From: Heterotrichella gracilis
Taxonomy: Eukaryota; Sar; Xanthophyceae; Tribonematales; Xanthonemataceae
Reading direction: 5' to 3'
Length of the DNA: 64,000 nt
Assembly (NCBI GenBank): GCA_032358255.1
Contig: JAULBX010001114.1
Span: 186,001-250,000 of the forward strand
Position 1 is the first letter of the stretch; each line of letters opens with the position of its first letter. Under the pieces are notes generated by a model. That model had not been told where the DNA came from, made no database searches, and worked only from the letters and a program-made list of their open reading frames with translations. A program made the translations under genes and the position numbers. Shown here piece by piece: positions 1-62,300 of this stretch.

Positions 1-3000
1 AGGGGCCTGCGCCCCTGGTGAGGACCTCCAAGGGCCCCTCGGTGGCCCCCCAAAATCCCAGAAATGTGGTCCGAATTCGGCAGCCCAGCAAGAAGGAATT
101 CCAGGAACTGCACAGGGCGCTGCTGGCGTATGGGATCCCCAGGGATGGAGCCAATCCCGAGGTGAGCGGCGTGGGGATTGGGGGATGGAAGGGCATGTGT
201 AGGTCTTGCAGCAATGGATGCAGCTTTTCCCCCCAGCATATTGCTTGTGATGTGGAGAGCTGCGGCAGGTGCTCTGGTATTATGTTCAATCTCATCCATA
301 GGCCGCAGGGAGTTCACAATGCAATTATTTTCAATTTCGTATGTAGGCCGCAGGGAGTTCACAATGGCCTAGCAATGCAAAGCTTGTGCCATGGCCCTAC
401 TCCCTACCCCACACCCGCAGGGCGCCCCCCAGTGGCAGTGGCTGATCTCGCGTGCCCGCCTTGACCCCCGCCCCGACCACATTATTGGGGCAATGGTGGC
501 GGCGCTGGTGGAGGAGGCGGAGGGCCTGGTCAGTGCAGGGGTGGAGGCGGCCAAGAAGCGCAAGGGGTTGGTAAACACAGAGGTAGGGGATCTGAATGCA
601 GGGCTGAACCCAGAACCCTGAACAGGTCCCGGCCGTATCAACCGCAGCGGGGGAATTTAAGTGAAACATGGCCCTGCACTGCTTTCGGCAAGGTGGAGTT
701 CTTTTGTTGGTTGGGGTGTATCTCTCAAGACAGAAGTTTGCTCATTTCTCTAATAAACAGCTGTCTCGTATACTGGGCAAAGGGCAAAACACACCCCCCT
801 GCCCGCTCCCCAGGAGTCAACACCCGAGGCCCCGCCAGGCGAAGCAGTGCAGGGGTCCACAGGCGGGGGCGCCCTCCCCTTGCTTCGCCCCCCTGGCCTG
901 CTGACAGCTGTCACCGCCGTGAGGCTCAAGGACAGGCTGGCGCTACTCGACTGCCTTCGCCAGGCGGTGGCGCTGCTGGATGTGGACTGGGAGCAGGTGC
1001 GCAACCCTAAGGAACCCTAATAGAACCCTCATGGAAACCCTAGTGAAACCCTACTGGAAATCGTAAAGCACAGGCTGCTACTGGACTGCTTGAAATCCTA
1101 GCAAACCCTAACAAAACCATAGATTAAGCGTAGTGGGTGCCAAGGTACTTGCCAGTGGTGGGGCTGGAGACCTATATCAAAGCACGTGTTGACAATTTTT
1201 AAAAACCCTAGGGCAACCTTATGCAACCCTAGAAAGCGGTAGGCAACCCTGGTGCAAATCTAGGCTGGGAACATGTTTGTGAGTGCGTGGTGCGATATGG
1301 CTGTGTGTGTGCAGGGCGGTGTTGACCCAGGCGCCAACGTGCAGCAGATGCCCATGTGGTGGACCGGGTGCCACGACAGGTGGGTGCAAGGGTGGGAGGG
1401 GGGTGATATGGGACATGGGATGGTGAGCAGCATTTTGGCCGGGGGCGCATGGCAACAAGGGGTCGCATGTGATTGAATGTGGGGTCACATGTGATTGATT
1501 GTGGGGTTGCATGTGGTTGAGAGGTGGTATGTAAGGGAGGAATGTGTGATCGAGGGGCGCATGCGATCGTTGAGTTGCATCAGGGATGTACCACTGGAAC
1601 GTGTAACATGGTAGTACAGTAAGTTAGTTAATATTCCCTTATGATTAGGAAGCTAGTTTGCCGCTGGTTGCATGTGGTCGAGGGACGCATGTGGTCTGGG
1701 GTTGCCTGTGACCCCGGGGACGCTGCGCAGGGATTTGGTGCGCGGCGTGCTGCGGCACGGTGTGGGTGCATGGGCGGCGGTGCAGTCAGACCCCAGGCTC
1801 TCATTCCTTGCCACAGCCCAGCAGGCAGCGCGGAACCAGGTGGAGGGGGGTGGGGAGGGGGGTGCAGATGGGGTTGCAGAGGGGCAGGAGGAGGGGGGCG
1901 TGGCGGAGTCGACGCCCCCCACCGGTGATGGCGAGGTGGAGGGGGAGGGGGAGGGGGTGGCGCCCATGGAGGTGGACGGTGGGGGTGGTGAGGGGGGCGC
2001 GCCAGCAGGGGAGGGCGAGGAGGTGGAGCCGCCTGGGGAGGAAACCCCGCTCCCTGGGGCTCCAGCGCTGGGCGAGGGTGGGGATGAGGGTGGGGATGGG
2101 GGTGGGGATGGGGATGGGGATGAGGATGAAGGGGAGGATGCAGTGGGGGAAGACGGGGAGGAGGAGGGGCCAGGTGGCAAGGGGGGCACTGGGGAGGAAC
2201 CGCCTGTGAGAAAGTACAAGATTGGCGGGTGGGCCCCCCCTGGGCGCGTGGATAGCCCCCCTGGTGTGCTCCCCCTGCCCCGCCAGTGCATCAAGAGGCT
2301 GCGCCACCTTAGCCATGCGCTCAGGTGGGAACTNNNNNNNNNNNNNNNNNNNNNNNNNNNNNNNNNNNNNNNNNNNNNNNNNNNNNNNNNNNNNNNNNNN
2401 NNNNNNNNNNNNNNNNNNNNNNNNNNNNNNNNNCTAAACCCTAAACCTTAAACCCTAAACCCTAAAACGGTGCATCAAGAGGCTGCGCCACCTTAGCCAT
2501 GCGCTCAGGTGGGAACTCTAAACCCTAAACCTTAAACCCTAAACCCTAAAACGGTGCATCAAGAGGCTGCGCCACCTTAGCCATGCGCTCAGGTAAGTAG
2601 TCTGACCTCCCCTGTCTAGTCCTGCTAAAATGTACCCCATTCTGATTTGCTGTCCCCATTCAGTGCTTGCCCGTTGTACACGTGGTGTAACGGCGACCGT
2701 TGATGCTAAGTTGGCGGTCTAAACCTAGCCAAGTCTCTAAACCCTAACCGTGATGCTACCTCTAGCGGTGCCTAAACCCTACTTCCTAGATCTCACCCTC
2801 ATCTGCCTCACCCCGCCCACCATCCAAGCACCTGCATCCTGATTCTCACCCACCCCCCACCCCCCACTCACCTGCACCCTAGACGTCACCCCAACCCACA
2901 CACCCCACCCCCCACCCCACCCGCAGGCGCCTGGTGAAAGCCCGCCTGAAGCACATCCACAGGCAGCGCGCACCCCGCACAGTCGGCAAGAGGGAGGTGC

Positions 3001-3988: not shown

Positions 3989-6900
3989 ATGCCGCCCAAC
4001 ACTCCCATTCCGTTGATCACGGTAGATATCAAGAAAGGAGCTTTGGAGCAGGAGAAGCCGCTGCATAACCGATGGCACCCAGACATACCGCCGGTGAGTG
4101 CCGCCGGTGTTGGGATATGGTGGGCATCCGCGGTTGTATAGGTTGTATCGCGGTGTGCGATGCATGCATGCATATGCCACACTGGTTTACCCTTCTGCTC
4201 ACCTCTCCTGCATGTGATCCTGCTATCCCTCTCCATGGTTGTTTCATGATCTCCCGTTCACGAAGGGGCACCCCGGCATGAAGCGACATCGCACTCAAAC
4301 CTTTGGCACACAAGCATCGGCAGTACACGCAAGTGTGTGGGGTCGAAAACAAGCACCACCGCGGCCCACAAACCACAAACACTTGCAAAGAAAGGTTATC
4401 GAACCACGACCTGATCGCATCTTTGTTCGCAGGTCGCGACGGTGAAGGAGGGTGACCTGTTTCGGGTGGAGACGGTGGACTGGACCGGGGGGCAGATCGC
4501 AGACAATGATGACGCGTCCGATGTCAAGACGGTGGACCTAAAGCAGGTTTGAACCCCTGGCTGGAAAGCGCGTGGGAACCTTTTTAAAAGTGTGGCGCAG
4601 CTATGGTCGTGTGGACGTCAGCAGAGCAAGGGCTACGGTCGTGGTCTGACATGTGTGCTGGCCAACCCTAGCTAGGGGCCAGGCCTGCCCAAACCTTTGC
4701 ACCAGCAAGGGGTCTCCCAAGTGTACTGTATTAGCCCGTATACCTGTAATCACCTGCATATCTCTCTGTGCAACCCCTTTCAACCGCTGCCCACCACCAC
4801 CACCACCCACCTCCACCACCACTACCACCACCATTGCCACCACCACCCACCACCCACCATTACCACCCACCACCCCGCAGGTCCATTACCTGAGCGGCCC
4901 AATCCGCGTGCTTGACCCCGAGGGTGCGCCTGCCTTGCCTGGTGACCTGCTGGTGGTGGAGATAAGCAACCTGGGGGCGCTGCCAGGTGCGGGAGGGAAA
5001 CCCTAAAACGCCAAACTGGAACCCTAACACTGTGAACTTGGAACACCTAGTATGTACAACGAGAGTGGGCAGGCGGCATTGTACACAAATTTTATGCTAA
5101 AAACCGGTGTTTGTACCAGCGTGCAAGCCAACTTAGGGTGGGCGGACGGTATGTACCATGTTTGGTGGACAATGTCGACATTTTCATGTCCCGTTTCCAT
5201 ACCCACCCGCAACCCTGAACCCACACCAAAATGTACCAGCCCAGAGGTGTATAGACACTGTCACTGGGCAGGCTGTTTTAAACCTCTGGTGAACCCCTTG
5301 CGTGACCTGCGATTGCAGGCGACGAGTGGGGCTTCACCGGCACATTCGACCGAGAGAACGGGGGCGGCTTCCTCACCGACCACTTCCCTTGTGCCACCAA
5401 GGCGGTGTGGCACTTTGACGGAATCTTCGCATCCTCGCGCCACATCCCCGGGGTGAGGTTCCCCGGCCTCATCCACCCGGGACTGATCGGCACAGCACCC
5501 TCCCACGAGCTTTTGAACATCTGGAACACCAGGGAGAGGGCGCTGGTGGACGGTGGGCCGGATGCGGTGACCTTGGGCGGGGTGCTGCACACGCGGCCAC
5601 TGGGTGAGTCGCCATCGCATGAAACCCTAAATCCTTGGGGGCAAACCTCACATCTGATGGGTGAAACTTCTAGTGGTGTTAGGTGCTTGCCGGCTGCGAG
5701 GGGTGGGTTTTTAGTGGTTGGGCCGGATGCGGTGACCCTTGCGGGGTGTTGCACAAACGCCTACTGGGTGAGTCGCCACCTAGAACCCTGGCAGGGACAT
5801 TCTAGAACGCTGCCTGTTGCCCATGGCACCACACTCACCCACGCATACTGCCTACCTCAAAACCCCTGTATATACCATTAACTCATTTTCATAGACCCCC
5901 ACCATATTTTAATTATATTCTTTGTTTATTTTCACAATCCCCCATCCACAGCCACCCTACCTCAGCCTGAGGGCGCCTGCCTAGGCCTCATCCCCACGGG
6001 GACTCCGGAATGGGATTCTGTGGCGAGCGAAGCCGCTCGCACAGTCCCTGGGAGGGAGAACGGCGGCAACTGCGACATCAAAAACCTGACCAAGGGGTGT
6101 AAAGTGTACTTCCCGGTGTTCGTGGAGGGCGCCAATTTGAGCATGGGGGATATGCACTTTTCTCAGGGGGACGGGGAGGTTTCCTTCTGCGGGGCGATTG
6201 AGATGAGCGGGTTCTTGGAGCTCAAGTGAGTGGTGGGGGGCGAGAATTGGGTAGGAATGGAGAAAAGTAAAAGCCTGAGCATTTGATCCATCAAATTTCA
6301 AACGCACGTCATAATGACGTCGTCATTACAGGGGGGCATATGCGGAGAGGGCATATGACTGGCAGGGGTCATGTATGCATGGGGCCTCAATATCCGTTAT
6401 TAGCACCTGAACACCTGAAAACAGCAGCAGTATTGGCAGCCATGGAACTTAATTGCATGGTTGGCGAGCTGTCTGTGGTAATAACATGGAACATAGGGTC
6501 CTAGATCGCCATCCCAATCCACTAAAATCAACCTCCCATTGCCCCTCCCAGGTGCGAGATCATCCGAGGGGGTATGGAGAAATACCTGACCCCCATGGGC
6601 CCCACCAAGCTGCACGTCAACCCCATCTTCGAGATTTCACCCCTGGAGCCCCGCTTCTCGGAATGGCTTGTATTTGAGGGCATCTCGGTGGATGAGGCTG
6701 GCCGGCAGCACTTTCTGGACGCCTCTGTGGCCTACAAGCGGGCGGTGCTGAATGCGATTGACTACCTGTCCAAGTTTGGGTACACCAAGGAGCAGGTGGG
6801 TGTAGGGTTGAGGGCTGCTTAGGGTTTAGGGTTAAGGATTATGGGTACAGCAAGGAGCAGGTGGGTCAGGGTTTAGGGATGTTTAGGGTTTAGGGGATAG

Positions 6901-12635: not shown

Positions 12636-15600
12636 TCAGAACTTGCCCTTGCTTGCATTGGCCGCCACCACCCGCTGCACCACCTCCTCCACCCCCACCA
12701 CCCCCACCTCCCCGTCCGTGTAGCTGCGCACCGCCAGGGTGCCTGCCTCCGCCTCCTTGGCACCCACCACGCACATCACGGGGGTCTTGGCGCGCTCGGC
12801 GTTGCGGATCAGCTTGGCGATGCGCTCGCCTGCGGGATGGGGGAGGGGCGTGGGTTGGATGCGGGATGGGCTGGTGGCAGGCAAGGGAGTCATGGAGGTA
12901 GGGTGAGGGAATGGGGTCAGGGAGAACGGTGTTGTAGTGGTGTTGATGTTGTGTGTGTGGTGTACAGCCCATCCCACAGTCTCCAGCCTTCCTGAAGGGC
13001 AAATGCCACACAACCCCATCATGTGGGATGTCATATCTCGTGGATGCAAATCTCTGGGACAGGCATGGGACTGTGATTGTGACCCACCTGACTGCACCTC
13101 CACTCGAATGCCCTCTGCGCGCATCTTCTCCGCCACCTCCTCCACATAGGGCATGACCGCATTGGTGATGGGCAGCAGGCGGACCTGCACAGGGGCAAGC
13201 CACAGGGGGAAGGCGCCTGCGGGGGAGGAGGGGAGGGGTCAGGAGCGGTGCAAATGTGTGTGTGTATGCACACTAGGGGAGAATAATCATGTGAGAAAGT
13301 GCCAGAGAGCCGTTTATGAGGGCGTCCATAGGTTTGCATGGTCTAAAACTTCAAGCTGACCATAGTAACGCAATGCCAATAGACAGACCCCTGCAATCAA
13401 TTGTCCCTAACTGACTTATCTACCCCCATTCAGCACGCCCTCTACGATCCCCACAGGGATGGTGGCCAATGAGCCCATGATTCCCCCCACACCACACCCC
13501 CATGCCCACGCCCACGCACCCGCGTAGTTCTCAATCAGGATCCCGAAGAAGCGCTCCAGGGATCCCAGCAGCGCGCGGTGGATCATGATTGGCCGCTGCT
13601 TCACATTTGCCTCATCCACGTATACCAGGTCAAAGCGCTCAGGCAGGTTGAAGTCCAGCTGCACCGTGGAGCACTGCCACTTGCGGCCGATGGCGTCCTG
13701 GATCTTGATGTCGATCTTGGGGCCGTAGAAGGCGCCGCCGCCCTCGTCCACCACGTAGTTCCAGCCCTGTAGGATGTGGTTTGGGCAGGGTTTGGGGAGG
13801 GTTTGGGGAGGGTTGTGGTAGGGTTCAAGGGTGGGCAGCATGGCGCCTGCCCTTGTGGCCCACTTTGTTCCAGGCTCTGGAAGGTAAGCGTATGGTTATA
13901 GTTTGGTGAATGTAGGGTTTAGGGCAGGGTTTTCTGATCCAGCAACCCACTTTCTGCTTCTGCTCCCTTTCTCCCCACCTTCACCCCACCACCCACCCAC
14001 CGTATTCTGCAGCGCCTCCACCAGCGCCTGCTCCGCTGTGTGCCACATGTCACCCCCCACCTATTCCCAGCACTACAGGGTACGCGTTAGGTATTGGTAG
14101 GGTTTGAGTAGGGTTTTGGCGAGTATAAGCGCGGGGTTTAGTACCATTGCCCCCACCTTGTTCTGCAGCGCCTCCACCAGCGCCTGCTCCGCCGTGTGCC
14201 ACATGTCGTCGGTGCCCACGCTCTTCTCTGGGCGCGTGGACAGGTTGACCTCGTACTTTGTGAAGCCAAAGGTGGTCATGATGAGCTGCGTGAGGTCAAG
14301 CACGCGCCGGATCTCCGAGGCAATCTGGGTGGGTAGGCAGAACACGTGCGCGTCGTCCTGCGGGGGGTTAGGGGAGAGTGAGGTGTGTGTGTGGGTGGGG
14401 TGGGTGGGGTGGGGTGGGGTGGGGGTTGGAAAGGGTGGAGAACAGTCAGTACAAATGCCAACGCTAGGACATGTAAAAGCACAAACCAAAGCCAATATGG
14501 ATATTCGTAGTATGTTGAATGCAATTTCCAGTTACATTTTAAGTACACTGCATAAAAACAAGATATCCGCCATGGTATATGACTTTACCCGTGGTACAAT
14601 TAAGTACAATGAGTGTGCATGATGTAATAGAATGAGTGGCATGACAACCCCCTCCATACCATGCGCATTCCACCCCACCCCACCCCCAGCCCGCACCTGT
14701 GTGAATCCCCGCACCCTGAACAGGCCGTGCATGGTGCCCGAGCGCTCGTAGCGGTACACCGTGCCCAGCTCCGCCCACCTGAGGGGCAGGTCGCGGTAGC
14801 TGTGCTGGCCCTGCTTGTACACAGTGATGTGGAAGGGGCAGTTCATGGGGCGCAGCTGGTACTCCTCATCCTCAACCTGCAGCAGGGGGTGAACGGTGTG
14901 GGAGACTGTACAAGGAGGGCATTTGGAGACTGTTTTAAAAGGGCTTTGGAGTGTAGAGAGATGCTTTTCATCGCCACTGCTGATCAGTAATGATGCCATT
15001 GCCACAGGCAAATTCACGGCTATTTGCAGGACTTTGATATAGACATGCAGGCATGCAGCACCAATGCACCCGCGCCACCAACTACCATTGCCCTCCCCCC
15101 ATATCGCCCCACCACCATCACCAATCTCACCCCCAATCAACACACAACCCCCTACCTTGATCTGATCATACATGTTCTCCTTGTAGAACTCGTAGTGGCC
15201 CGAGGTCTTCCACAGGTCCACCTTGGCCACATGGGGGGTGTACAGGAGCTGGTAGCCGGCCCGCAGGTGCACCTCCTTCCAGTAGGACTCGATGACGTGG
15301 CGCACCATGGCGCCGTTGGGGTGCCAGAACACCAGCCCGCCCCCCGCGGCCTCGTTGTTGATCGAGAACAGGTCAAGCTCAGTGCCCAGCTTGCGGTGAT
15401 CTCTGCATGGAAGTTACAAACAGGGGTTTGGACAGCAGTTCGAGGGTTTCATTAGGTTTTGGGTGGCCATGGGTTACGTCTGCAGCCTCAACGGGCACAG
15501 GTTGATGATTGGCACCCACCTGGTGTCAGACCCTGCCCAAGGGTTTCATACCGCCATACATGACGAGACGCATTTTTTAAGGCCCAAAAGTGTCAAGCCA

Positions 15601-18504: not shown

Positions 18505-20755
18505 ATGAGGACCCGGTGCCTGGCCAGCGAGGGATGGCAGGAGCGGATACAGAATAAAGTGGCGATAGCAGGTAACCATGATTGCGTAGATTCACCTCAC
18601 ATTGGCTACAGGTTCTGGGCTTCGTTGCCGTGATGCATGCATGCATGCTTGATGCATGCATTAGTGATTGCACTGCTGGTGCACTGCGGGCGGCAACTTA
18701 GGCACGCAGCCTCCCTCCTCTTCACCCAAATGCTTCACATGTATCACTGTCTGTTCACCCTAGTTCACCGCCTATCACGCACAACCCTCTGCCACTTGGT
18801 CAACCACCCATCCATCTGCACCCGCATGCAGCCTATTGGCTCCACGACTCTGTGCTTCACTCTTCTCCTGTGCAACCCCCCATTGCCCCACCACCTACCC
18901 CACCTTACACCCATCTGCACCCACATGCACCCTATGGTTCTTCCGCAGCTTGCCTTTTAAGACACTCACTTTTCTTTCCTACCCCCCCAACACCCCAACC
19001 CCCGCATCCCCCACCCCCCACACCTCCACTGCCCCACACAGGTGGCGTAGGCCTGTTTGGTGGCAGCAGCTGGAGCCTGTTTGCGCGCAGGCCCTTCCTG
19101 CGATACAGCTTGGGCACTTCCGCTAGCTGCATGTGCGTCATGGGCTGCTTCGCGGGTGAGTGGCAGGGGATACCCGTGGGGGTGGGGGGTATGGGAGGAG
19201 AATGTGCCCTTGGCTGGGGCTGGGGATGTCATTAACTATGTCCACTGTAGGTTTAAGATGGCGATACTTGCATTCACTCGTTTAATGTAAGAAATTCCAT
19301 GTGAAATTTTAGCCATGGGGAAGCATGGAACGACTGTCATCGTCAAGATGCATCCGTCAACTACTGTGATAGGTGCATTCGATGCAGTGGCCTTGTCACC
19401 TGCTGTGTGTGGGCCTCTGCTCCCCGCCTCACATCGCTGTGTATCACCCGCCATGGCACGTCGGAGGATCCAGCTGCTGCACATGCACACAAGCATACAC
19501 CCCCTCCCCGTTTCACGTTGATGTTGCATCATCACAACCCACCTTGGTGCCACATGGCAGGGTTCCAAGAGATCTCCCGCCGCCTGCTGTGCAAGGACGG
19601 GCCGGTCAACAGCGCATTTGCAGGGGTGGCGGCAGGCACGCTGCTGCATGAGCTGTACCGTGAGTCAAACCCTAACCCAACAAACCCTAAACCCGCCATC
19701 CAAATGCATGTACAGGCTGTCACCCGTGGGCGTTCCTTTATTTCTTTCTTTCTACAAATAGCGGCAGGGATGCTGCTGCATGAGCTGTACTGTGAGTCAA
19801 ACCCTAATCCTAAAAACCGTAAACCCTAAATCGTCATCCACATGAGCGTACCGAGGTGCCGACAGGGACAACGCTGCATGAGCTGAACCATAAGTCAAAC
19901 CCTGACCCTACGTCGCAATTCACATGTGTATACCAAGGTGGTGGCAGGCACCCAGGTGTACAGGTACGTCAACCCGCACGTTACTCATGGTAGTGTACAC
20001 GTTTACCTACCGAGGACTCTGGGGCAATGAATAGGTAGAGTCAAGGTAGGAGACAGACCACCTCACAAGTGACGTACCCCCACCCATGTGTGGCGCAGGG
20101 GGGCGGGTCCACCCGGTCCAGGCGGCGCTGGTGTGGGGGGTGGGGGGTGCGGTGCTGCACTCGGCGTACGACTGGTTTGAGCCGCGCTTCAGGAGGGGGC
20201 TGGTGGAGCTGGATTTGCTGGATGCGGGTGGGTGGTGGTGGTGGTGGTGGTGGAGGTGGTGTGTGGGGGGTTGTCAGGGGGAAATTTGTTGTACATTAGA
20301 TCGTCTGCTGAATGGTACTGTGCATCTGGTCTGCATCTCATTATTCCCACGCATTGCTGCCATGTGGCCCGCCTGAGCCGCCACAACCATTGGCATTTGC
20401 GTAGAATGGGGGTGTAAGAGAGATGGCAATCACAGGATGTACTCCACGTCACTTAAAATACCTGTGTCATCTTTCAATCCCCTATCACCAGCTACCCGTT
20501 CTAGCCTCAATTAAACCCCCATGTCACCCACACATCCCATGTCAAATACCCCCATGTCGATTTACCCCCCATGTCATACACCCTCCAGATGCGCTGCGCC
20601 AGTTGGAGGAGGCCGAGCGTGCGCGGCGGGGGTACGGCCCCCCCGAACCCCCAAAACGTACCTGGTTGGAGATGATCCCAGGGGTGACTAAGATGAGCGA
20701 CGAAGAGTGGGTGGAGTACCAGGCGCGCAAGCAGAGGGAGTTTGAGGCCAGGTAG
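18505..20755 (+). CDS. Tim17/Tim22/Tim23-family membrane protein
   Basis: Five exons, all in phase: 18505-18571, 19042-19155, 19561-19659, 20099-20227 and 20589-20755 (TAG), 191 aa. The small first exon gives MRTRCLASEGWQERIQNK followed by VAIAG and splices into GVGLFGGSSWSLFARRPF. Gly-rich hydrophobic segments typical of the family follow: SLGTSASCMCVMGCFAG, then FQEISRRLLCKDGPVNSAFA with GVAAGTLLHELY, then VQAALVWGVGGAVLHSAYDW, suggesting three or four membrane helices. The R(x)LxxKDxPxNSxxAGxxAG stretch matches the Tim17 signature. The C terminus is charged (EEAERARRGYGPPEPPKR). Such proteins sit in the inner mitochondrial or chloroplast envelope membrane as translocase or solute-pathway components; which one cannot be told here. 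Intron 3 carries three echoes of the exon 3 end. Confidence 0.72.
19761..19908 (+). repeat. Echoes of Tim17-family exon 3 end with donor
   Basis: The exon-intron junction at 19629-19675 (GCGGCAGGCACGCTGCTGCA ... TACC|GTGAGTCAAACCCTAA) is repeated at 19761-19807 (donor GTGAGTCAAACCCTAA kept) and, more diverged, at 19861-19908. A partial GGTGGTGGCAGGCACCCAGG near 19940 may be a fourth copy. Every copy runs into a CCCTAA/CCCTGA motif. Confidence 0.88.
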
Positions 20756-21802: not shown

Positions 21803-24800
21803 TCAGCCTTCTGCAAAGCAAGTGACAAACATTGCCTCCACCGCCAGCGCCTCCGCCTCCCCGCCACCCCACCACCCCCCAGCCACCTCCCCACACATCG
21901 CCCTGCACTCGCACCGCCCCCCCGGGTACCCAGCGCTACCATCCAGCAGCCTGCTGCAATTGGCTGCATTGCCCCATGTCAACTGCCGGGTGGCATGCTC
22001 ACCTTGTCCCCAAGGGGCCACCTCCAGCCCGTACCACGCGCCATGCCTGCCCAGCATGCGCACTGAAGCCCCCGCCTGCCCTGGCAACCACCTGAGGGTG
22101 CATGTCAGGCGGGAGGCGTCTGTGGGCAGGTGCATGTCCAGGTTGACCTGGCCTGGTTCGCTGTGGCAGAGCTCCTCCTGGCAGGAAGTGAACATGTTAT
22201 AAATAATATTAATAATTATGATGTTTAATTAATTGCGTGAATGATGTATTGCAGGCAGGTGCATGTCCAGGTGAGTTTGCCCTGGGCCGCATGGGTACCA
22301 GATTTTCCTTGTAAAAGAAAATTTTATTTAATGGAAGTCATGCGGGAAGTCATGCATGAACATATTAGTGGGTATGCAATGCAGTGGGAAGATCTGTTGT
22401 GATTTATACTACACCTGGTCCAGAAATGTTTAGTCCCTCCTCCCGTGATGACCCGCACCACTATTGATTAGCAGTGCAGGTCAACGCGGGAGTAAAGGCT
22501 GAACATTTCTGGTGTCATATTTATCACAACAGATCTGATTGATGTGCACTGCATGATGCAAGCACACCGCGTACCCCCTCCACCTCCTCATCCTCCGAGT
22601 ACTCATCATCCACTGGTCTCTCCACCTCCACAGGTCCTCCCACCACCACCTCCAGGGTGTGCAGGCAGGGCAGGTCAGGGAGCATCAGGGAGCATCAGCT
22701 GGACAAGCAATGAGGGGAGGTAAACCACAGGTTCTACATACAAGGGTTAATATGCAGCAAACATGTGTGCATCTGGGATGAGGGTATAACAGAGTAGTAA
22801 AATGGTTGTCAATGCAATGCTACAAGCCAGGATCAAGTCTACTTCTGGTGTATAGTATGAAAACTCTTGGAAGTTCGTAGGGCCTAGACAACCCTTGGAA
22901 GTTCGTAGGGCCTAGACCCTATGCTAAGGCCTTTTTTTAAGCATTACGCCTAGGGCTTACCTTCAAACCTTGGAGCAGTGGCTTTAGAGTCCCGCAGGCG
23001 GAGCACTTCCAGCGCACACATGCCTGCCAGCGCACGCTCAAACTCCGCCCCAAGCAGGGGCCACAATGGGCACAGGTGAAGGGAGGTCAGGCGGGTGAGT
23101 GGCGCCAGCGCTGCATACAGCTTGGGCAGCGAATCAGCTGTACCGTCCACCCTATCTAGGGTCAGCTCCCTCAGTGAGGTGGGGAGGCTGGTGACGGTGA
23201 ACGCCCCTCCCAATCCGCATTCATTGCTGTACCCCACCTCCAGCCTGGTCAGTGCCTCTAGGGCTATGAAGCTGACTGGATCAAGGCCTCCCCTCTTGCA
23301 GGACGTGATGGACAGCCTACTGAGCAGGGGAACCCTCGACAGGGCTTCCACCCACCCCGTCCCCTGGTGGGATGCTATCGTTGCTGCGGGTTTCTCCAGG
23401 TTAGCTAACCTAGGCAGGGGCGGTAGGCTGACCAACACCCCCAGATCCTCGAGGCCCAACAGCGCCAGGCGAGTCAGGCTGACCAGGGGCGCTAGCGCCT
23501 GCAGCGCCTGGTGGTATTGCTGGCTGTTGGCCAGGCGCAGGCCCAGGTCTAGTAGGGCGGTGAGGCGGCCCAGGGCTGAAAGTGACTGAGGGTCCCTGTG
23601 GAGTGCGTGAGCGATGTGCTCAAGGTCCAGGCGCAGGGTGTGTAGCCTGGGCAGCCGGCATACTCCCTGCATGGGAGGGACCCATGTTACGAACATGAAT
23701 TTAGGTACATATATAAATTTGTCGTAAGAGCGAATTACTTGTATTCAGGTACAAAGCCTGGGTAGGGCTGTACATTCCCTACATGAAACAACATGATGAT
23801 AGATGAAATAACATAATGATAGACGAAATAACATTATAATGATAGATGCAGCGCCTGTCACAGGCCTTACAAACTGCTGCCAAGTTCCGCGAAACGGGTC
23901 TTGACCTCATGGAGACATTTTGATTTGCAAGGGAAATTCCAACAAGGTACCTACAACGATACACCAGAATCTCACCTCCAACAGCACGATGCCATTCTCG
24001 CCTGCCCTCACATGCCCCTCATGGTAGATTGCCACCCCTTCCAAGCCGGGGTCAGGGTCTGTCTTCACATCCACCTCCAGGTGGTGCAGGTCCGCCAGGG
24101 CACACACCGCTTCCACGGTGGCTACCGAGGTGCGCCAAGCCTCAGGGACCCAGAACACCTTTTCAGAGGTGGGATTTCTGCCCTCTGGGTGCACCCCTGC
24201 GCCAGGACACGGATTTCAGGCGAATGTTTTTTGGGGTGTAGGGTTTCCAAGTGTAGGGTTTTAGGGTGTAGAGTCTCTGCCCTCTGTCCAAGCACCACTG
24301 CACCAGGACACGGATTTATAAGCCTATAGGGTGTAGGGTACAAGGCAACTCCAAGCAACTTCTGCACGCTGCTTGCGCCACAGCTCTGTGTGAGGTTTTA
24401 GGGTTAGGGTTAGGGTTTAGGGTTTAGGGTCCTCACCCTCCGTGACCTCCTCAAGGACCTCAGACCCAAACTCCACCGTCACCCCCCTCAAGCTGTGCAA
24501 GCCAGCCGGGTCCACATCTCGCAGCAAGGGCTGCATCCGGGAGTCGCCCCGCGGCAGGTGTTGGCTAGTGGTGGCCGCAATGCGTGGTTGGGTGTAGGCC
24601 CCTGTGTTTGACCAGGTGGCACGGCACAGGACATGGATGAGTTGATGTGCTGCTTCATGCCAGGCTCTGTCCTGCAGCATCCTTAGGTGTTGCTCCTGCT
24701 CCTCGTTTTCCTCTTCCTCTTCCTCTTCCTCTTCCTCTTCCTCCTCCTCTTCTTCTTCCTCCTCTTCCTCCCCCTGCTCGCCCAGCTCCTCCTCCCCTGC

Positions 24801-33280: not shown

Positions 33281-33349
<69 letters not shown>

Positions 33350-40678: not shown

Positions 40679-41326
40679 GGCTCACAGGTGGGTGATGCAA
40701 GTGACGGCGTGTGGTAAGTGGTACTGCGCGCGAGACGGTGAGTAGGGAGGGAAACTAGCAGCAGCACAGCGCCTGCTAGTTATGACAGCGGCGTGGTGGC
40801 TGTGGTTCCTGTTTGCCCTTGACTATAGCATGGCGGAACTTGTGGACACTTCCAGAATCTTCGAAAACTGCCAGAGTCTGCGAAAATTGCGAATGCATGC
40901 ATCAACTGCGATTGCATGCATGCATCAAAGTTATCGCGCATGCAGCACTGTTTCAGGTCCAGCACGCAGGTCGAAATCCTATATCAAGAGGGGACAACAG
41001 CCAGTTAAGGTAAAAAAGCTGGAAGCGTGGCATGAGCTCATAGGTACAGCGCTCAGTGGAATGTCGACAGTTTAGGGTTTAGGGTGTAAGCACCCCTGGC
41101 TGGCTCACTCACGAGCCCTCACGAGACTGTGGTCTGGTGTGACGCTCCCCTCTTACGCTCATGCTATTACTTGTAGTAGCGCAGGGTGGTGAAGCGAAAT
41201 AATACCCCCGCTCCCACCCTACTGTAAGCCCTACCGGCAGCAATGCTGTGGCGTAAAACCACCTGTCCTATCGCATTTTGCTGCAACTCAACCCCAACCC
41301 ATAACCCTACTGGCCCACTAAAAACC
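40679..41326. other. Arrestin B upstream region and spatacsin 3' UTR
   Basis: Tandem minus-strand arrangement. Similar in pieces to 33853-34780 and 35110-35790. Contains ATGCATGC-type short repeats and one AGGGTTTAGGG motif at about 41070. No gene seen. Confidence 0.6.
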
Positions 41327-44300
41327 CTATTTGTCTCTCTCCCCACCCGTGGTTGGACCGCTTCCACCCTCGTTCCCCTGCCACCCGGGATGCACATCGA
41401 GGACTTTGAGGCAGTCCCGAACCACATCCCCAGCCCCATTCCCCGCTGTCTGTGCGCACTGCAGCCGCAGCTGGTAGTTGGGGAGTGCCTGCAAAAACTC
41501 CTCGTATTTCTGCTGCAGCAGCGACCCCTGGTTGGTCCCCGGGGATTGCGGCCCTCCTTGCTGGGATCCCCACTGCTCCCGCAGCTCCCGGTACATGACT
41601 GCCAGCTCCAGTGCCTGCTGGTCGTCCAGGGGGACTGCTGCCTGCGGGAAAGAGGGGTGCGTAAGGGTTGGGAAGTAGAACGGGATGCTGCAAGGGCGAT
41701 AATAACACGTCACACAATCCTCAGTACAATGCACTATTGGACCTGCTTGTATGGCAGCATGCGTCCCCCCCCTCCACTCCTGCCTCCCTCCACCACTTAC
41801 CAGGAAGTCCCGCAGGTAGCCCCGCCACTGCGCCAGCGCCGCCTCCCGCTCCGCCCCCCCACCCCCTCCACCCTCCGCCGCCGTCAGCCTCTCCCACAGC
41901 AGCGTGAGCCAATCAGAGGGGGCGGTGGCACCGCATGCAGCCGCCACCACCGCGGCCTCCCGGAAAGAGTCCAGGTGGGGGAGGAGGTCCCGGCAGGCGG
42001 ATGGGGATAGGCTCAGCAGCTGCAGCCGGGGGTAGCGCACCTGCGCAGGGTTTTGGTGGGGTTGAAGATAGGGTTTTGAGTTGGATGATCGAGCGCGAAC
42101 AGGCGCAGCGCACCACGCGTGCGGTTGCTTGTCCTCCATATTCTAGATTTATAGATTTTGGTACTTTCAACAGGGTCTGAGGTTTCTTTTAGGGTTTTTT
42201 GTTCTCTTCCCTAGGGTTTTCTCACCTGCAGCGCCAGCAGCTCCGCCAGCTGGCAGCACCGCAGCAGCGCCCCCCCACAGCCGCTCGCCTCATACCCCTT
42301 GGCAGCCGCCACCAGCCCCCCCATGCAGTCAAGCAGCACCAGCACCTCCCCAGGCCCCAGCGCAGCCGGCTCCCCACCCCCACCCCCACCGGCGGGTGGT
42401 GGTGGGGGGCTACGGGTGGATGTGAGGCGCGCAATGCGTGCGCGCGCGTCGCGCTCTGCGTCTGCTGCTATGTCCCGGGTCATGCGGAAGTACTGATGGA
42501 CCATGTGGGCGGCCGCTGTGCGCGCTGCAAAGGGATGGAGGGTGGGGGTGAGCTACTCAATTCCATGCATTCCGGTAATGCTGACTATAAACTGGCTGCA
42601 TTCCGGTAACCGCCCCAATGTTTGCTCATGCTTTTCTTTATCATTTGTTAAATTTTTGGGCTTTGGGCTTTTGCTTGCTCCTGCTGCAGCCCCAACCCCG
42701 CCCACCCACACACACGTGGTGGCGGTGCGCTCCGCCATGCACATGAGGGGTGCGCTCCCCACCTTCCTCCGTCTCCCCCCTTGCTCGATTGCCGCCAGCA
42801 GCGCCCCCCTCATGGCCCTATTTTGTGTTTATTTCCAGTGGAGTTTGGCCTTCGCTTTGCTTCTTTGACAACCCCAACCCCCTCGCCCACCCACACCCAT
42901 GGTGGCGGTGCATTCCCCACCCTCCGCCCAACCCCCCCCCTGCTCACCTTCCTCTGTCTCCCCCCCTTGCTCGATTGCCGCCAGCAGCGCCCCCCTCATG
43001 GCCCTTGGCCCAGGCCCTGCACCCGAGTCTGCGCCCGCCCCCCGCTTGCGCAGCAGCAGCTCCAGCTGGTCGCCCCGCACCAGGTGCTCCAGTGCGGGGC
43101 GGAGCTGGCGGTAGCGGCCCAGGCCTGCGGGGGATTGGTCAGAGACTTTAGCATACCCTGTTTTTCAAGATATTCAATCCTGTCTATTTTTAAAGCAAGT
43201 AAGCTGTTAGGCTTTTGATAATGGCCCAGGCCTGTGGAAGATGGTAAATTGGGGTTGAAAGTGGGGATGTCCAGTGAGGTTCCCTTCCAAAACCCAGGGA
43301 GGTGTGAGCAATGTAGAAGCCATAAAACGAAAATCCCAATAAATCACTAGAACCACTCCGCCTTAACATGATAGATCATCGCATTTTCCCCACCTGTGAC
43401 TATGAGCACCAGGCTCTTATAGTCCCCCTGGGCAGCGTACTCCCCTGCCCGCTTTGCCGCCAGCTCAAGCAGCATATCGATGCAGTCCTAGGCATGGCAC
43501 GCAGCATAAAAGCAATACAACTACAGTCCCAATAAGTTATTAGATTCAATCCGACTTAACAAGACTATTCACCGACTTTTTTGTGTTTGCCCCACCTGTG
43601 ACCATGAGCACCAGGCTCTTGTAGTCACCCTGTGCAGCGTACTCCCCTGCCCGCTTGGCAGCCAGCTCAAGCAGCATGTCGATGCAGTCCCAGGCATGGC
43701 AGGCAGCGTAGAAGTGGTGCGATGAAATGACCAGCTGCGCCTCTACCGGGGAGGGCAGGGCTGCCTGGCGCTCTAGCAGGATCTGGAGCAGGGCTGAGCC
43801 GAGGTCCAGGGGCTCGTGGAAGGCCTGCGGGGAGGGTTTGGGGTTAGGGTTTTGGAAGTAGGGTTTAGGGTTTTAGGGTTTTTGGACAGGCAGGGTTGGT
43901 AGAGGGCTGAGCCGAGGCCCGGGGCACTTGAAAGGCTTGCAGAGAGGAGCTGCGGTTAGGGTTTGAGGTATGGTTTTGGGCACACAGGATGCCGAGTTCT
44001 TTAGGGTTTAGGGTCGCCACCAAGTAATCATGGCACCCCCCTACCCCGTACCTGTGCGCAGGCCATAAACGCCTCTGCTGTCCACTGTTGCCCCGCCTGC
44101 TCCCCCTGGTCGGCCCCCGCGTGGTGCGCCAGCAAACCCTTGAGTAGGGTTTCTGCAAGCAGGCGCGCGGTGGTGGCGGTGGGCAGGCGGTGGGCGGATG
44201 CATACTCGAGGGCAACCTGGGGGAGAAAGAAGGGGGGTTGCTTGCGTGAAATCTGTAGAAATGGTGTCTACAATGCACACAATGCATGCGCCTGTAGGGG

Positions 44301-47300
44301 TACCCAAGGCAATCTTGAGCAGCCGAAGCAAAGTGGGTACCCTCCATACACATGTAGACAAGGGCAACACCCATCCACAACATCCCCGTTCCCCCTTCCC
44401 CTGCTCACCTGCCCCATGTCCCTTCCCTTGGCCAGCAGCAGTGCCACGCAGCTCTCGGGGCCAAGCGCCTCCACCTCACCCACACTCAACTGGAGGAGGC
44501 CTGCGGGGGGGTGGGGTGTGAGGGGGACATCGGGACGCATGGCCACAAAGTGGGCCAGTGGGGAAATGTACATATCACAGATACAGATGTACCGATATCC
44601 CAGATCCCAAATACCGATATCCCAGATACAGATACAGTATCTGAGCTATATTGCAGACAACACCAGCTTTTTGGAGCCACCTTTTTGGTTCCATTATCAA
44701 CGAGACACCACCGCCACTGCTACATACAGCACAGGCACACACGGTCTCCTCCCGCACCTGCCGCCCTGAGGGTTGCTGCCGCACGCCCCGCCAGCCTGCG
44801 CCCGTATCCGTCTCTGCATGCCTGTGCGCATGCGTCAACCACGTCCTGGGCAGAGCTGGTGCCAAGGTCGCCAAGTGCACCCTGCACAAGGGTTTGGTCA
44901 GGATAATAAACAAATCCTGGAAGTGGGGTGAAAAGGGGCTAAAGAAACGGTTTCAGAGATGAATTGATACCATCTTCATACCCTATTGGCTTGAGTACAC
45001 AATCCACCTACTGCAAGGATCCCACCGGGGGGAGGTTAGTAGCACTCGCGCACTGTAGGAAGGGTTCACGTAGGGTTTCTTGCGCGCACCTTGCGCTGCA
45101 GAAACCCTAGCACCGCCCTCTGCACCAGCCTGGACAGGTCGGGCTGGCTAGGGTTTCCAACCAAACCCTCGCTTGGTGGTTGTGGCTCGGCTGCGTAGGC
45201 CCTTAACACCCTAATGGCCACCTCCACCAATGCCAGCTCGATGGGGGGTGCGATGAGATCCTTAGCTAGGGTTCTGGCGGCGGGGAGGTTGCCTTGGTCT
45301 AACAGAATGCGCACAGCCTGCAGATGATGGGGTGGCCAATTCGGGCATTATTTCTCGTGAGTTATCCAAATTGTTGGGGTGACAATTGACAGTTGCACAT
45401 GTGGCGTGAGCCAAGCACAACTTGCATTGATCAGCACTGGGCAAACATACAACAAACAGCAAGGGCCACTAAATAGATCATTGTAACCTTCAACAATGTT
45501 ACAAAAAGAATTTAAAAAATAAAACCATTTTAATTTTGTTTTCTGTAAGTTTATTTTATTACATTTTGACTAGGCAGTGGTATGCCAGTGCAGAGGATGC
45601 CTTAGAAAACATGACATGCACACATGGCGCATACTAGTACATTCTGTAGCACACACCGGTCGTCTTAAATGGGACATTTAATGGGGAGTTGGTCAATTGA
45701 GGACAGTGTGCTGTGCGCAATTGCGTCCTTTTGCGCACACAATTGTGCTCACTTCCATGTTTATACGTAGCGTTCCTAACCATATCCACATGCACATGCA
45801 CACGCACATTCAAATATGGTTGGACTGTGATTCCCATTCACATCCATTTTCACAGCCCTATCTTCACTTACTGGTGTTCACGTTTACGTTTACCTACCTG
45901 CTGGAGCTGCTTGGTCCCTGGCTTCCCCGCCACCTTCCTGATGCTATCATACATCCCCTGCCAAAACCCTAGCTCCTCTTCGGTAACCTCCCCATCCACG
46001 GACAGAACCCCAGGGACCGCATTTTGGGACCCGATGGGAAGCAGGGATTTTCCGGATTTTGGCGACACCGTGAGGAGTGATCCCTGGGACTCCAAGGAGC
46101 CCGAGGGTTTTGTTAGGGTCAGGAGGGAGTTGCTGCTGGTGTGGTGGCTGCCCCGGGTGGGATAGGATTGCTGCACCTGGTCATGAAACACACATGTCTG
46201 TTTGGATGACAGGATGAAAAGCAGGGAACGAGCCCCATTTGAAAATTACTGAAGCCTTAATGGTCCCCCACCGCACCTCTTCCTCCACGCTCTGCAGCTT
46301 CCCCCCTAGGGCAGCCCCGCCCCCCTCGCTCCCCTCCCCTGCCCCCTCCCCCTCCCCTGCATCCCCTACCCTCTCATCCCCCGCCCCCGCCCCCCCTGTG
46401 ATCTGCTGCACCAGGGGTTTCCTCCCCGTCACCTGCTCCACATCCTCTTCCACCTTGGCCAATAATAGCTGGAGGGCACGAGCCAATTCGAGCAAAATTG
46501 CGCGGGGGGTTTGCGGAGAGGAATAGGTCCCGTCCAGCCACCACAGCGCCTCCTGCAGGCGATGGGATGAATAGGGTTATATGGGGAGCACCCTAGGGTT
46601 TGCGAAGACCATCCAAAGGATTTTGAGCAACCATCTCCTGGGCAATGAGCACTGCAACCGATTTCAAGGACTGCCAATGCCCCCAGATCTGCAAATATTG
46701 TCATAGGGTATCAATAGATATTTCACAACAAAGAGATGCACCATGACCGGCTACACTGCTGGGGCAGCAATTAGAGTTTGGTCGGGGATTTGCCAGGGTG
46801 CATTTGCCGCCAAAACCCCGTACCTGCAGCAGCATGCACTGCTCCGCATAGCGCTGTGTTTTGTGATTCGCACTGGACCACATTATAAGGGTTTTATTAG
46901 GGTTTTGGCAAGGTGAATTCGCCGCCAAAAAATCGTACCTGCAGCAGCACGCACTGCTCTGCGACAGTGATGTGCTTCGCGGTCCCTAGCCGCTGCGCGA
47001 GGGCCACAAAGTACTGGCCCGCGAGGTGCCCCGGGAGGCCAAACTCCAGGAAAACGCGGTTGATGTCGTCCCAGGCCCCGTCCCGGAATTTGGGATCCCA
47101 TGCCAGCTGCTGCCACTGTCCCAGGGATGCATCTGCCTGGGCCAGGGTGATGGTGTCTGGGGATTGGCCAGAGTGGAGCGCCCAGCTGAGGACAAGGGGA
47201 GGAAAGTTGAATAAGCAACAAAATATGATTTGCCCTCCTTAATGCTGCAAACTCCCATGTGTGACCCGGGGAGGATCACGGCAAGAGATGTACCTCAGAA

Positions 47301-59323: not shown

Positions 59324-62300
59324 ATGTTTCCTCAAACGAGCCAACGTGGGGTCTTCCTGAGCTACCCACCACAGATCACCCAGCGAACGGCCCGAAATGG
59401 CAGAACCCATACTACCCACGTGGCCTGTCACACCAAGCGTTCTTCAGAAACAAACGGTGAGTTTTAACCCTCTAAAACCTATAGAATACCAGTGGCATCG
59501 AAGTTACAATGGTGGGCAAACGGCTTACCCAACGTTGTCCCATGTCCAAGTGAGTGGTCAAGGTGCCTATTCGGCCAACGGCTCCCATAGCTCGCACATA
59601 TCCTGGGTCTATGGCCCAATATTGTAAAAACATTTTCCAAGAAGTGTTATTTGTCTTAGTGGACGAATTCAATGGTTGTATGCAGTGGTTTTCAACCTGC
59701 AAAAGATACCAGCTGGCCCAGTTCGAACAGTGCATGGCGTCTGTCGAAAGCACGCCCTCCATGCCCACTAGTGGTTGCTCCCGTTCCGTTTCAGCCACGT
59801 ATTTGTGAACCTCACTAACCTGGAGCTGAGCTTTTTGGCGTCTGCGTTGTCCTGCTCTTCCTGCATCTCCTTCCAATTGTCTGCAGATCAGTTTCCACCT
59901 TGCCCGCTGTGCCATGCACCCCTTCCAAAAGCACCAAGGTTGTCGTGCCTTTTGTCCTGTGGCAAGAAGTATCACTCGAAGTTGATACTGGTAGCGCCTT
60001 TAAATCGTTTCGTCCTTTTGTCAGGCAGTGGGTGTTGAGTTGAACCACAACTGCTGCTACATGACAAAGGACAGCTGAACAACTGCACCCAACTTGTGGC
60101 CGGGTGTCACTGGGGGATGTTCTAGGTTCATTTCATGGGTGTAATAGTAGGACAAAGGACAGACCATGCCAGTGCTGTCCGAGCATAGAGCAAGAAATCC
60201 AGTTCACATTTGGGATTGCAACGCTCCCTAGCCGGTAGACTCACCCACGCCACCTGCCTTGTGCCCTAAACCCTAAACCCTAAACCCTAGACTCACCACG
60301 CCACCTGCCGTGTGCCCCACAGGCCGGAGCTATGACCTGGTGCTGTCCAGCGGCTTCCTTGCCTTTGCAAACCATGCAGGCTTCTTGCGAGCTGTGGAAG
60401 AGGTAGGCGCCACCCTCACATTCCTGCTGTACCTCCCGGTAAAAACATTCATCTGTATCCTTGGCGATATGGTCACGAGATTGCATTGTACAGCAGAGTT
60501 GTAAGCATGCTCTACATCATTACGAGCATCCAGTGCAAGGCATGCAGCATAGCAAAGCATACGCATAGGGCTTGGTACTTGCCTCAGCCACTGCAGTCAT
60601 TGCAAATTGTTCGTGTGCAAGGGTGTCAGCTTTGCGGCTGAGTGCTGCCCCTTGCCAACGGCGTGATCATCAACAAAGGCCCCACCTCGTGACGTCATGA
60701 TTATAACCTTTCCACCTTGGTGCATGGGATCGTAAGCTTGTAACCTGCTCAACATGTTCATGCCATCATTATCCTGAACCCTAACCCCTCCATATCCTGC
60801 GGCAGGCGGGCATCCCTGTGGGTGGTGTGATGGGCACCTCAGCAGGTGCCATAGTCGGCAGCCTGTACTGCGCGGGGTACTCACCGGAGGAGGTGCGTGC
60901 AGTGGAAATAGTGTTTTGTTTCAGGATTTCGCATCTATCACGGTGCTACCTCCTGCATGCACCTCGGGATTGCAAAGCACGAATGTCGGTTCATGTCATG
61001 CCTAGGACATCCTGGCATTGTTACACCAGGCGCTGATCTTGCGCAATCAAATGTCGTTCGGTCAGTTCAGCCCTGGCTACACATGCTGAGAAACCACCCC
61101 CATTTGCATGCCAGGCACTTGGCTGCATGAGCTGATCCTAGTTTGAACATCCTGCATAGACAGAGGCATATACTTGTCAATCGCGGTGCACATGGAATGC
61201 ATAGCTTGTGTGGACCTGGTAGTACGAAATCCTGCCCCTGTATAAATTCCCCCATTCAGTTTCCAAAATATGCGCTCTATATTATTTCTTTTTCATTTTT
61301 CACTTTTCATCTGTCCAGGCCGCTCGGGAGCTGTCCCGTGACCCACCCATCAACCTGCTGCGCCCTGAGCTGGCCCCCTGGAAGGGGGGGATCATATCAT
61401 TGGAGGGGGTGGTGGAGCGGCTTAGGGAGCTGCTGCCCCCCACATTCGAGGACCTGGACCGGGAATTTGCGGTGGGGGTGGCCACCCGGGATGGCGAGCA
61501 TCTGCTGATCGATGCGGGACCCCTTCCTGAGGCGGTGGCGGCCAGTGCGGCCATTCCAGTGGTGTTTTCCTCGGTGCATGTGCCAGGTACGCTGCAGCTA
61601 GGGCGTAGGGTTTGAGATGGTGGGCTAGGGTAAGCCTGCTTATGGGTGGTGGGGGTTGGTGTGAGGTTTACGCTGGCTTGAGGCAGTACATTGGGTTGTG
61701 CATTTGAGAGGACAAAGTGCCAGGTGATCGGGCGGGGTAGGTTTGAGATGTGGTCATGGGACTGTACGACCTGAATTATCTGTGATGTCTTTGGCGCCAA
61801 AGGGTGAGCGGGTCGAAATCGTGGCGGCACGAGTGGTGAGAAGCAGAAGTGTTCCCAATCTTCCAATATTTCAGAAAATGGCACGCTGCACCAGCTTGTC
61901 ATGTGCCATGGGAGCTGTACACCGGGTTTGAGGAGCCACCGGGGATGGCTATGGTGCTGCTGCCCCTGTTATCTTCCTAGTCCCTGTTCCACCCAGGTGC
62001 ATGCACATTAACATGCACTTCTTCATCCCTCTCACATCCCACCTCACAGGCGCTGCCCAGGGCCCTTTTGTGGATGGAGGCGTGATTGACCGCACCGGCC
62101 TGCGCGCGTGGCGGCACAGGCGAAGGAGCCAGCTGACAGCCAGCGGTAGCCCTGGTGCAGCCCTGCCCCCTGCCCTGGTGCACCTCATTCAGCGCTCATC
62201 GCCATTCTCAGGGGAGGACGATATGACGCGAACAGGTGGGGAAGAAGGGGAACATACGGGGCCACATACACATGGGGCAAAGGCATTACTGCTTGCCATG

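What the first reader, a model, noticed from the sequence alone, without database searches (positions are those of the whole stretch)
299..60316. Exon-edge echoes: recurrent tandem copies of exon borders inside adjacent introns
In the CHD, formamidase, ThrRS, Tim17-family, both F-box, both arrestin and spatacsin genes, with a related flanking repeat in the patatin gene, stretches of about 20-118 bp that span an exon edge and its splice site are repeated in the same orientation in the neighbouring intron, one to three times, 45-200 bp apart. Copies are diverged (about 1 to 25% by eye), which argues against an assembly artefact, and most are separated by CCCTAAA/TTTAGGG-like motifs. Both donor-side and acceptor-side copies occur, sometimes at the same exon (spatacsin exon 25: 43391 and 43885). 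I know of no named element that does this. One reading is template switching or telomere-motif-guided repair of breaks in introns; another is ongoing intron growth through junction duplication, which would also supply spare splice sites.
Basis: partly seen in the sequence, partly recalled or inferred. Interest (0 to 1): 0.88.

Follow-up and report, generated by a model that had tools for sequence, protein, structure and literature searches.

The report
Telomere-spaced exon-edge echoes in introns
In this green alga's genome, many introns carry a near-copy of the end of the neighbouring exon, usually separated from it by a scrap of telomere-like DNA, which looks like scars of DNA breaks mended with telomere-making machinery and may be a way for introns to grow.

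Summary
In the window and 17 further 10-kb stretches of the same 68.5-Mb green-algal genome, 38 of 164 predicted introns carry a same-strand copy of a flanking exon edge (24 donor, 22 acceptor edges). Controls at the same score: antisense 0 of 328, far ends of the same exons 1 of 272, unrelated introns about 0.15%. Thirty of 46 copies are separated from the edge by TTTAGGG/CCCTAAA-like filler. In 20 of 21 such pairs of at least 85% identity, the duplicated block ends between 6 nt before and 11 nt past the splice site. TTTAGGGTTTAGGG occurs 5,629 times, its reversed control 5 times. Of 40 such tracts, 19 lie within 15 nt of an exon edge, against 5.4% of non-exonic control positions. Echoes decay as non-coding DNA. 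Best reading: staggered breaks filled in on both sides (the echo), telomerase-type addition to one end (the filler), then end joining; some units later expanded as minisatellites. The ingredients are known; the combination was not in the search listings seen. Why the filler sits at splice sites is unexplained.

The parts
2286..2594 (+). CHD-like gene: exon end 2286-2324 plus donor, 100-N gap 2334-2433, exact echoes 2470-2517 and 2554-2594, CCCTAAA-like filler 2434-2469 and 2518-2553 (84-bp unit)
   Evidence: abuts an assembly gap, not among the scored introns
5554..5614 (+). formamidase exon 4 end with donor (splice after 5603), outer copy
5719..5778 (+). echo of formamidase exon 4 end in the intron, identity 0.88
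6777..6801 (+). formamidase exon 6 end with donor (splice after 6795), outer copy
6842..6866 (+). echo of formamidase exon 6 end, identity 0.96; TTTAGGG-type filler 6802-6841; a third, weaker copy follows near 6906-6936 (by eye)
   Evidence: (64-bp unit, 2.3 copies)
14161..14207 (-). ThrRS exon end (donor at 14157), outer copy
14005..14051 (-). echo of the ThrRS exon end, identity 0.98
19629..19666 (+). Tim17-like exon end with donor GTGAGTC (edge read by eye at 19659)
   Evidence: Pfam Tim17 E 1.6e-4, below gathering score
19761..19798 (+). first echo of the Tim17-like exon end
   Evidence: 92%
19860..19896 (+). second echo of the Tim17-like exon end
   Evidence: 76% to the first echo
24177..24317 (-). 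F-box gene: acceptor-side edge 24177-24216 and echo 24276-24317
   Evidence: 83%
26422..26563 (+). F-box gene: 65-bp array of CTGCAG acceptor units upstream of the exon starting at 26563
   Evidence: by eye; not among the scored echoes; Pfam F-box-like
29602..29904 (-). arrestin 1, last exon: acceptor-side edge and two echoes (29733-29806, 29833-29904)
30108..30158 (-). arrestin 1: echo, identical 51/51 to the exon end at 30222-30272; TTTAGGG filler between them
31274..31456 (-). arrestin 1: acceptor-side edge with upstream echoes
31670..31957 (-). arrestin 1: donor-side edge (31883-31957) and two echoes, 75-bp copies with CCCTAAA filler (sense)
32309..32660 (-). arrestin 1: donor edge 32641-32660 with echo 32309-32328
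   Evidence: 0.90, 20 nt
37036..37290 (-). arrestin 2: acceptor-side edge and two echoes
37456..37653 (-). arrestin 2: donor edge 37587-37653 and echo 37456-37522 (88%)
38698..38880 (-). arrestin 2: acceptor edge and two echoes
38995..39172 (-). arrestin 2: donor edge 39100-39172 and echo 38995-39067 with CCCTAAA filler (sense)
39496..39621 (-). arrestin 2: donor edge 39598-39621 and echo 39496-39518
   Evidence: 0.91, 23 nt
43790..43940 (-). spatacsin: acceptor edge 43790-43828 and echo 43903-43940, CCCTAAA filler (sense)
   Evidence: 0.87
46791..46977 (-). spatacsin: donor edge 46906-46977 and echo 46791-46861
   Evidence: 0.77
42663..43005 (-). spatacsin: plain tandem duplication across an exon edge, no telomere filler
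   Evidence: 0.76
43314..43714 (-). spatacsin: whole-exon tandem duplication, about 200 bp, no filler
   Evidence: 80%
60236..60316 (+). patatin gene: 29/28-bp direct repeat flanking CCCTAAA units, wholly intronic, just upstream of the acceptor

Best explanation
Scars of staggered DNA breaks at exon-intron borders. Two nicks on opposite strands, one close to the splice site on the intron side and one typically 28-50 nt inside the exon, leave complementary overhangs. Both overhangs are filled in, which duplicates the exon edge and its splice site. A telomerase-type activity adds TTTAGGG repeats to one 3' end first, and end joining seals it as edge / telomeric filler / edge. Splicing from the outer edge still gives the normal mRNA, so the event survives and the intron grows. 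Some units later expand as minisatellites. Shown here: the duplications, the filler, its place at the splice site, the non-coding decay of echoes. Inferred: the nicks, telomerase, fill-in and joining, and use of the outer splice site (no RNA data).
For: Echo rate against four controls. Telomere hexamer coverage of spacers 0.192, flanks 0.094 and 0.092, sample 0.030; 54 of 76 spacers hold a hexamer against 32 and 29 of 76 equal-length flanks; 25 of 29 pairs of at least 88% identity have one. Near-identical events with filler between the copies and none just outside: L021 22/22, L040 56/56. For telomere-spaced pairs of at least 85% identity the block ends from 6 nt before to 11 nt past the splice site in 20 of 21, the last at 47. 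Of 40 tracts chosen by sequence only, 19 lie within 15 nt of a facing exon edge against 5.4% of controls, and 9 have flush flanking repeats against 1.7%; 7 of these 9 have an edge within 25 nt. Whole-genome runs of at least 14 nt end, on the G strand, at a T in 6,971 of 10,358 (67%; 43% if phases were equal); primase starts opposite a pyrimidine (PMC8355091, passages), and T is the only pyrimidine of TTTAGGG. Contig C173 ends in a TTTAGGG array, so this is very likely the organism's telomere repeat (L028).
Against: No related strain, reads or RNA were available, so no empty site was seen. Several arrays also have telomere motifs beyond the last copy, which fits slippage of a motif already in the intron. 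16 of 46 echoes lack a telomere hexamer in the spacer. In the unselected sample the 3'-end bias is modest (36 of 52 runs of at least 12 nt, p 2e-4; 5' starts 25 of 50), and at 14 nt or more the two sides are alike (22 of 35 and 21 of 34); genome-wide only three of seven 5' phases were counted. The control is non-exonic, not restricted to introns, which makes the excess look larger than inside introns. Interior intron duplications exist: 29 of 431 segments. Masking telomere hexamers shortens the measured intron extent in arrays. The model does not explain why splice sites are preferred.
Confidence: 0.5

Rival explanations
1. Minisatellite birth: telomere-like motifs already sit near splice sites, perhaps because they help splicing, and replication slippage or unequal exchange at these G-rich motifs duplicates motif plus exon edge.
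For: Telomere hexamers are concentrated within about 60 nt of both intron ends, and more weakly so in 116 introns without an echo. Several arrays repeat edge plus motif with the motif also after the last copy (L020, L025, L019; Tim17). Near acceptors almost only the sense CCCTAAA orientation occurs.
Against: In some near-identical events the motif lies only between the copies (L021, L040). The telomere-spaced block stops at the splice site instead of running on into the intron, though masking of the motif contributes to this in arrays.
Confidence: 0.25
2. Polymerase-theta or template-switch repair copying nearby DNA and telomeric sequence as templated insertions, with no telomerase.
For: Direct local copies next to filler are typical of such repair (general knowledge; PMC5730883 seen in search listings only).
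Against: The internal telomere 14-mer exceeds its reversed control 5,629 to 5, so one sequence is strongly favoured, and no inverted exon-edge copies reached score 16 (0 of 328).
Confidence: 0.12
3. Intron gain: each case is a new intron made from inserted DNA with a long target duplication (introner-like or Rogers-type tandem duplication).
For: Edge copies with AG before and GT after them occur (L040, L031, by eye); a boundary-crossing tandem duplication made a new intron in potato (PMC4974935, passages).
Against: No echo is flush with the far splice site: 0 of 46, nearest 77 nt. Echoes evolve as non-coding.
Confidence: 0.05
4. Assembly artefact.
For: The CHD array abuts a gap and is exact.
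Against: The 46 scored pairs range from 71 to 100% identity, one being exact, and occur in the window and 8 of the 17 stretches.
Confidence: 0.02

Closest known systems
Interstitial telomeric sequence insertion at double-strand breaks in mammals (PMC2246262, PMC7215372; passages read)
   Same: Short telomere-repeat stretches inserted at break sites; telomerase invoked; direct target duplications at some loci, attributed in the horse paper to staggered breaks.
   Different: Duplications are a minority there (6 of 130 rodent, 4 of 25 primate, 3 of 66 horse loci, plus complex cases), and none of 229 human loci lies in an exon. Here tracts look far denser (the thresholds differ: two repeat units here, four there), often sit at a splice site, and 9 of 40 have flush repeats.
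Small tandem duplications by CST-guided Pol alpha-primase fill-in of 3' overhangs (PMC8355091; abstract and passages read)
   Same: Duplications spanning 43-49-nt overhangs of staggered breaks, made by a fill-in complex that also serves telomeres, then end joining.
   Different: No telomeric filler and no splice-site position were described in the passages read.
Repair-mediated proximal duplications in vertebrates (PMC2671141; abstract and one section read)
   Same: Short local duplications from break repair, a few including exon/intron borders.
   Different: Only 4 of 824 donor sequences were partial exon/intron; no telomeric spacer in what was read.
Intron gain by tandem duplication (potato RdRp case, PMC4974935; passages read)
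   Same: A tandem duplication crossing an intron-exon boundary.
   Different: There a new spliced intron resulted; here echoes sit inside existing introns and decay.
Plant telo boxes (PMC3022908; passages read)
   Same: Short telomere motifs scattered in genes.
   Different: Those are most frequent in 5' UTRs and the first introns; no exon-edge duplications appeared in the passages read.

Membership tests
Telomerase-mediated interstitial telomere insertion | Telomere-repeat stretch absent from the orthologous empty site | not testable with these tools
   No relatives are held for this genome.
Telomerase-mediated interstitial telomere insertion | Repeat matches the organism's own telomere | tested here: met
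   Contig C173 ends in a TTTAGGG array (L028); 5,629 14-mers in the genome against 5 control (telomere ends included).
Telomerase-mediated interstitial telomere insertion | Primer register: bases at the break in phase with the added repeat | not tested
   Needs the empty site. Only the phases of run ends were counted.
Tandem duplication by overhang fill-in | Direct duplication of tens of bp | tested here: met
   Exon part median 35.5 nt at >=85% identity, 26 pairs.
Tandem duplication by overhang fill-in | Dependence on CST/Pol alpha-primase and end joining | not testable with these tools
   Genetics needed.
Introner elements | Many similar intron-sized copies at unrelated sites, each a whole intron | tested here: inconclusive
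   One 301-bp query only: besides itself, 7 matches on other contigs, all within its echo/telomere-like part. Exon edges match unrelated introns at 0.15%. Whole introns were not compared across the genome.
Intron gain by AGGT tandem duplication (Rogers model) | Echo flush with the far end of the intron, so that splicing removes one copy plus insert | tested here: not met
   0 of 46 echoes lie within 12 nt of the far splice site; nearest 77 nt.
Minisatellite (tandem repeat expansion) | Unit repeats head to tail including the spacer | tested here: inconclusive
   Met in some arrays (CHD, formamidase exon 6, arrestin 1, L020, L025), not in two-copy events such as L021 and L040.

The most novel reading that the evidence does not exclude
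Telomere-making machinery acts routinely at DNA breaks made at exon-intron borders, perhaps by structures that form during transcription and splicing, so that an alga's introns keep growing by copying exon edges with telomeric filler between them.
Probability: 0.25. Interest if true: 0.9.

Novelty: new variant of a known kind. Interest (0 to 1): 0.75.

Why it matters
It would give a natural system with thousands of telomere-repeat tracts for studying how telomerase and fill-in act at internal breaks, and a concrete, dateable mechanism for intron growth. If the splice-site position is a mutational preference, it points to breakage tied to exon borders, for which I know of no accepted explanation. 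It also warns that gene finders can mistake echoes for exons: mine did, in the arrestins.

Tried and rejected
Considered and set aside: introners, Rogers-type intron gain and assembly artefact (see rivals and membership). Echoes as alternative coding exons: not supported, since mismatches fall on all codon positions (0.143, 0.128, 0.204) and 65 of 74 indels in the aligned pairs, intron parts included, are not multiples of three; the third-position excess (p 6e-4) is what synonymous change in the exon copy would give, but a trace of constraint on some echoes is not excluded. First gene-finder settings over-predicted small exons and were replaced. One script stopped on a cache error after printing its first table; the rest was rerun. 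The listing was cut in the output; its stored table was used in later calls. Run-end phases include loci chosen by one 14-mer rotation, which biases phases; I use the genome-wide counts and instead. Rfam at gathering score and ARAGORN (bacterial settings) found nothing in the window. The formamidase search listed green algae and land plants as nearest (83% to Myrmecia bisecta; the highest bit score was a coconut record at 78% over 77%), but did not name the species.
Full report
SETTING. The window is part of contig C13 of a 68.5-Mb, 903-contig assembly. Protein similarity places it among green plants, most likely green algae (species not identified). Genes supported by Pfam: formamidase, threonyl-tRNA synthetase, arrestin, patatin, spatacsin C-terminus, F-box, ribosomal L10/L16; Tim17 is below Pfam's cut-off, and the CHD-like fragment had no Pfam match at E 0.001. 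Exons come from my own self-trained gene finder, without RNA evidence. Trained on the hand-read formamidase, it recovers that gene's eight exons; the final settings shorten one of them.

IS IT THERE? One search finds 58 near same-strand repeats in the window, many of them simple repeats. One search, after masking telomere hexamers and simple repeats, finds 129 local pairs in the window plus 17 stretches (L010-L027 without L014, which is withheld; L009, of 36% GC, was left out). The stretches were taken at one fixed place of contigs C2-C20 (C13, which holds the window, left out), not drawn at random.

For 164 introns between well-scored exons (from the window and 16 of the 17 stretches), each exon edge was compared with the neighbouring intron. 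Score 16 or more: donor 24 of 164, acceptor 22 of 164, 38 introns in all, 8 with both. Antisense: 0 of 164 and 0 of 164. Far end of the same exons: 1 of 134 and 0 of 138. Edge against other introns: 0.15%. At score 14 the controls rise to 1 and 2 of 164, 2 of 134 and 1 of 138, and 0.52%, against 24 and 27 of 164. By source: window 13 of 65 introns, L025 9 of 12, all other stretches 16 of 87.

EDGE VERSUS INTERIOR. Of 77 duplication loci, 71 are genic. Telomere-spaced ones touch a predicted exon edge in 35 of 46, against 17.6 (sd 3.1) for random shifts; those without telomere spacer in 19 of 25 against 14.6 (sd 2.2); leaving out the window and L025, 23 of 34 against 16.4 (sd 2.6). The random shifts include places inside exons, where duplications would be selected out, so they understate the expectation. 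In introns without an edge echo, 29 of 431 interior segments have a partner (each pair is seen from both sides), against 46 of 328 edges; in introns with an edge echo 44 of 196 do, echo-echo pairs included. So the edge excess is real but not absolute, and part of it may come from slower decay of the exon copy.

ANATOMY. Across 46 echoes the gap is 28-138 nt (10th to 90th percentile), and 30 have a telomere hexamer in it. Telomere-spaced pairs end close to the splice site; plain ones run on into the intron (Mann-Whitney p 2e-4). At 85% identity or more: telomere-spaced, 20 of 21 between -6 and +11 nt, one at 47; plain, 6, 15, 37, 67 and 80 nt. Masking telomere hexamers shortens some of these measures in arrays. 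The cleanest events are L021 (22 bp repeated exactly around 23 bp of filler) and L040 (56 bp repeated exactly; the exon piece reads like a protein-kinase segment, by eye). No echo is flush with the far splice site (0 of 46).

TELOMERE TRACTS. The 14-mer TTTAGGGTTTAGGG occurs 5,629 times on both strands, overlapping matches and contig ends included; its reversed control 5 times. Forty tracts were taken by place from the 100 listed, all on contigs C3-C8; those on C2 and C9 and several others (near contig ends, in fetched stretches, or close together) were not taken. 19 of 40 lie within 15 nt and 22 of 40 within 25 nt of a facing predicted exon edge; 240 random non-exonic positions give 5.4% and 9.2% (Fisher p 1e-10 for 15 nt). 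In 167 introns the motif is densest within about 60 nt of both ends; beside acceptors it is almost only CCCTAAA in the sense strand, as expected if AG-bearing TTTAGGG is selected against there (inference).

POLARITY. Genome-wide, runs of at least 14 nt end on the G strand in phases T 1610, T 1978, T 3383, A 1095, G 614, G 896, G 782. Start phases counted: T(first) 1406, A 1861, G(second) 826; four start phases were not counted. Internal repeat variants add to some of these counts. In the window and 17 stretches, after dropping runs that go on as variants, 3' ends fall on T in 36 of 52 and 5' starts in 25 of 50 at 12 nt or more, but 22 of 35 and 21 of 34 at 14 nt or more. I treat this as weak support for primer-directed synthesis, not as proof.

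FATE. Mismatch rates between edge and echo are 0.143, 0.128 and 0.204 at codon positions 1-3, and 65 of 74 indels are not multiples of three, so echoes decay largely as non-coding DNA. Splice dinucleotides in echoes: 35 of 37 and 34 of 38 kept, not above the pair identity. The two arrestin paralogues share all four echo sites compared; at one, exon and echo are identical in one paralogue (51/51) and 88% alike in the other, which suggests later copying between exon and echo or renewed duplication.

MECHANISM. Passages of PMC8355091 report that small tandem duplications at breaks with 3' overhangs depend on CST-guided Pol alpha-primase fill-in and end joining, and that primase starts opposite pyrimidines. 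Adding telomerase extension of the overhang before fill-in would give edge / filler / edge, filler in either orientation depending on which end was extended, and tracts ending at T. The combination is my inference. The position at splice sites is not explained by it. Possible causes, untested: breaks at the borders of RNA-DNA hybrids or of exon-placed nucleosomes, or selection favouring telomere-like sequence beside splice sites.

LITERATURE. Ten searches in an open-access library: none of the titles and abstract openings listed describes exon-edge duplications with telomeric filler. The listings held at most 20 rows each, and most subscription papers are missing from the library.

Noticed in passing
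window 2334-2433: A 100-N gap lies inside the CHD-like array; the units beside it are identical, so the true array may be longer.
   Followed up: partly
window 28781-40850: Two arrestin genes in tandem, sharing the echo sites compared; whole-region similarity about 65%.
   Followed up: partly
window 43314-43714: Whole-exon tandem duplication in spatacsin without telomeric filler, a second kind of event.
   Followed up: partly
window 33284-33348: A run of 65 C in an arrestin intron.
   Followed up: no
window 8547-10763: Ribosomal protein L10/L16 gene on the minus strand; no exon-edge echo was scored in it.
   Followed up: no
L028 (end of contig C173): The contig ends in a TTTAGGG array with variants such as TTCAGGG, probably a true telomere.
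   Followed up: partly
L009 (C1:50001-60000): GC of 36% on an 894-kb contig, the longest seen, against 52-57% in the other readable 10-kb stretches; perhaps organellar or foreign.
   Followed up: no
L025: One stretch in which 9 of 12 scored introns carry an echo, a strong local excess.
   Followed up: no
window 50878-50992: A 57-bp tandem repeat, two copies, 96% matches, between spatacsin exons and without telomere filler.
   Followed up: no
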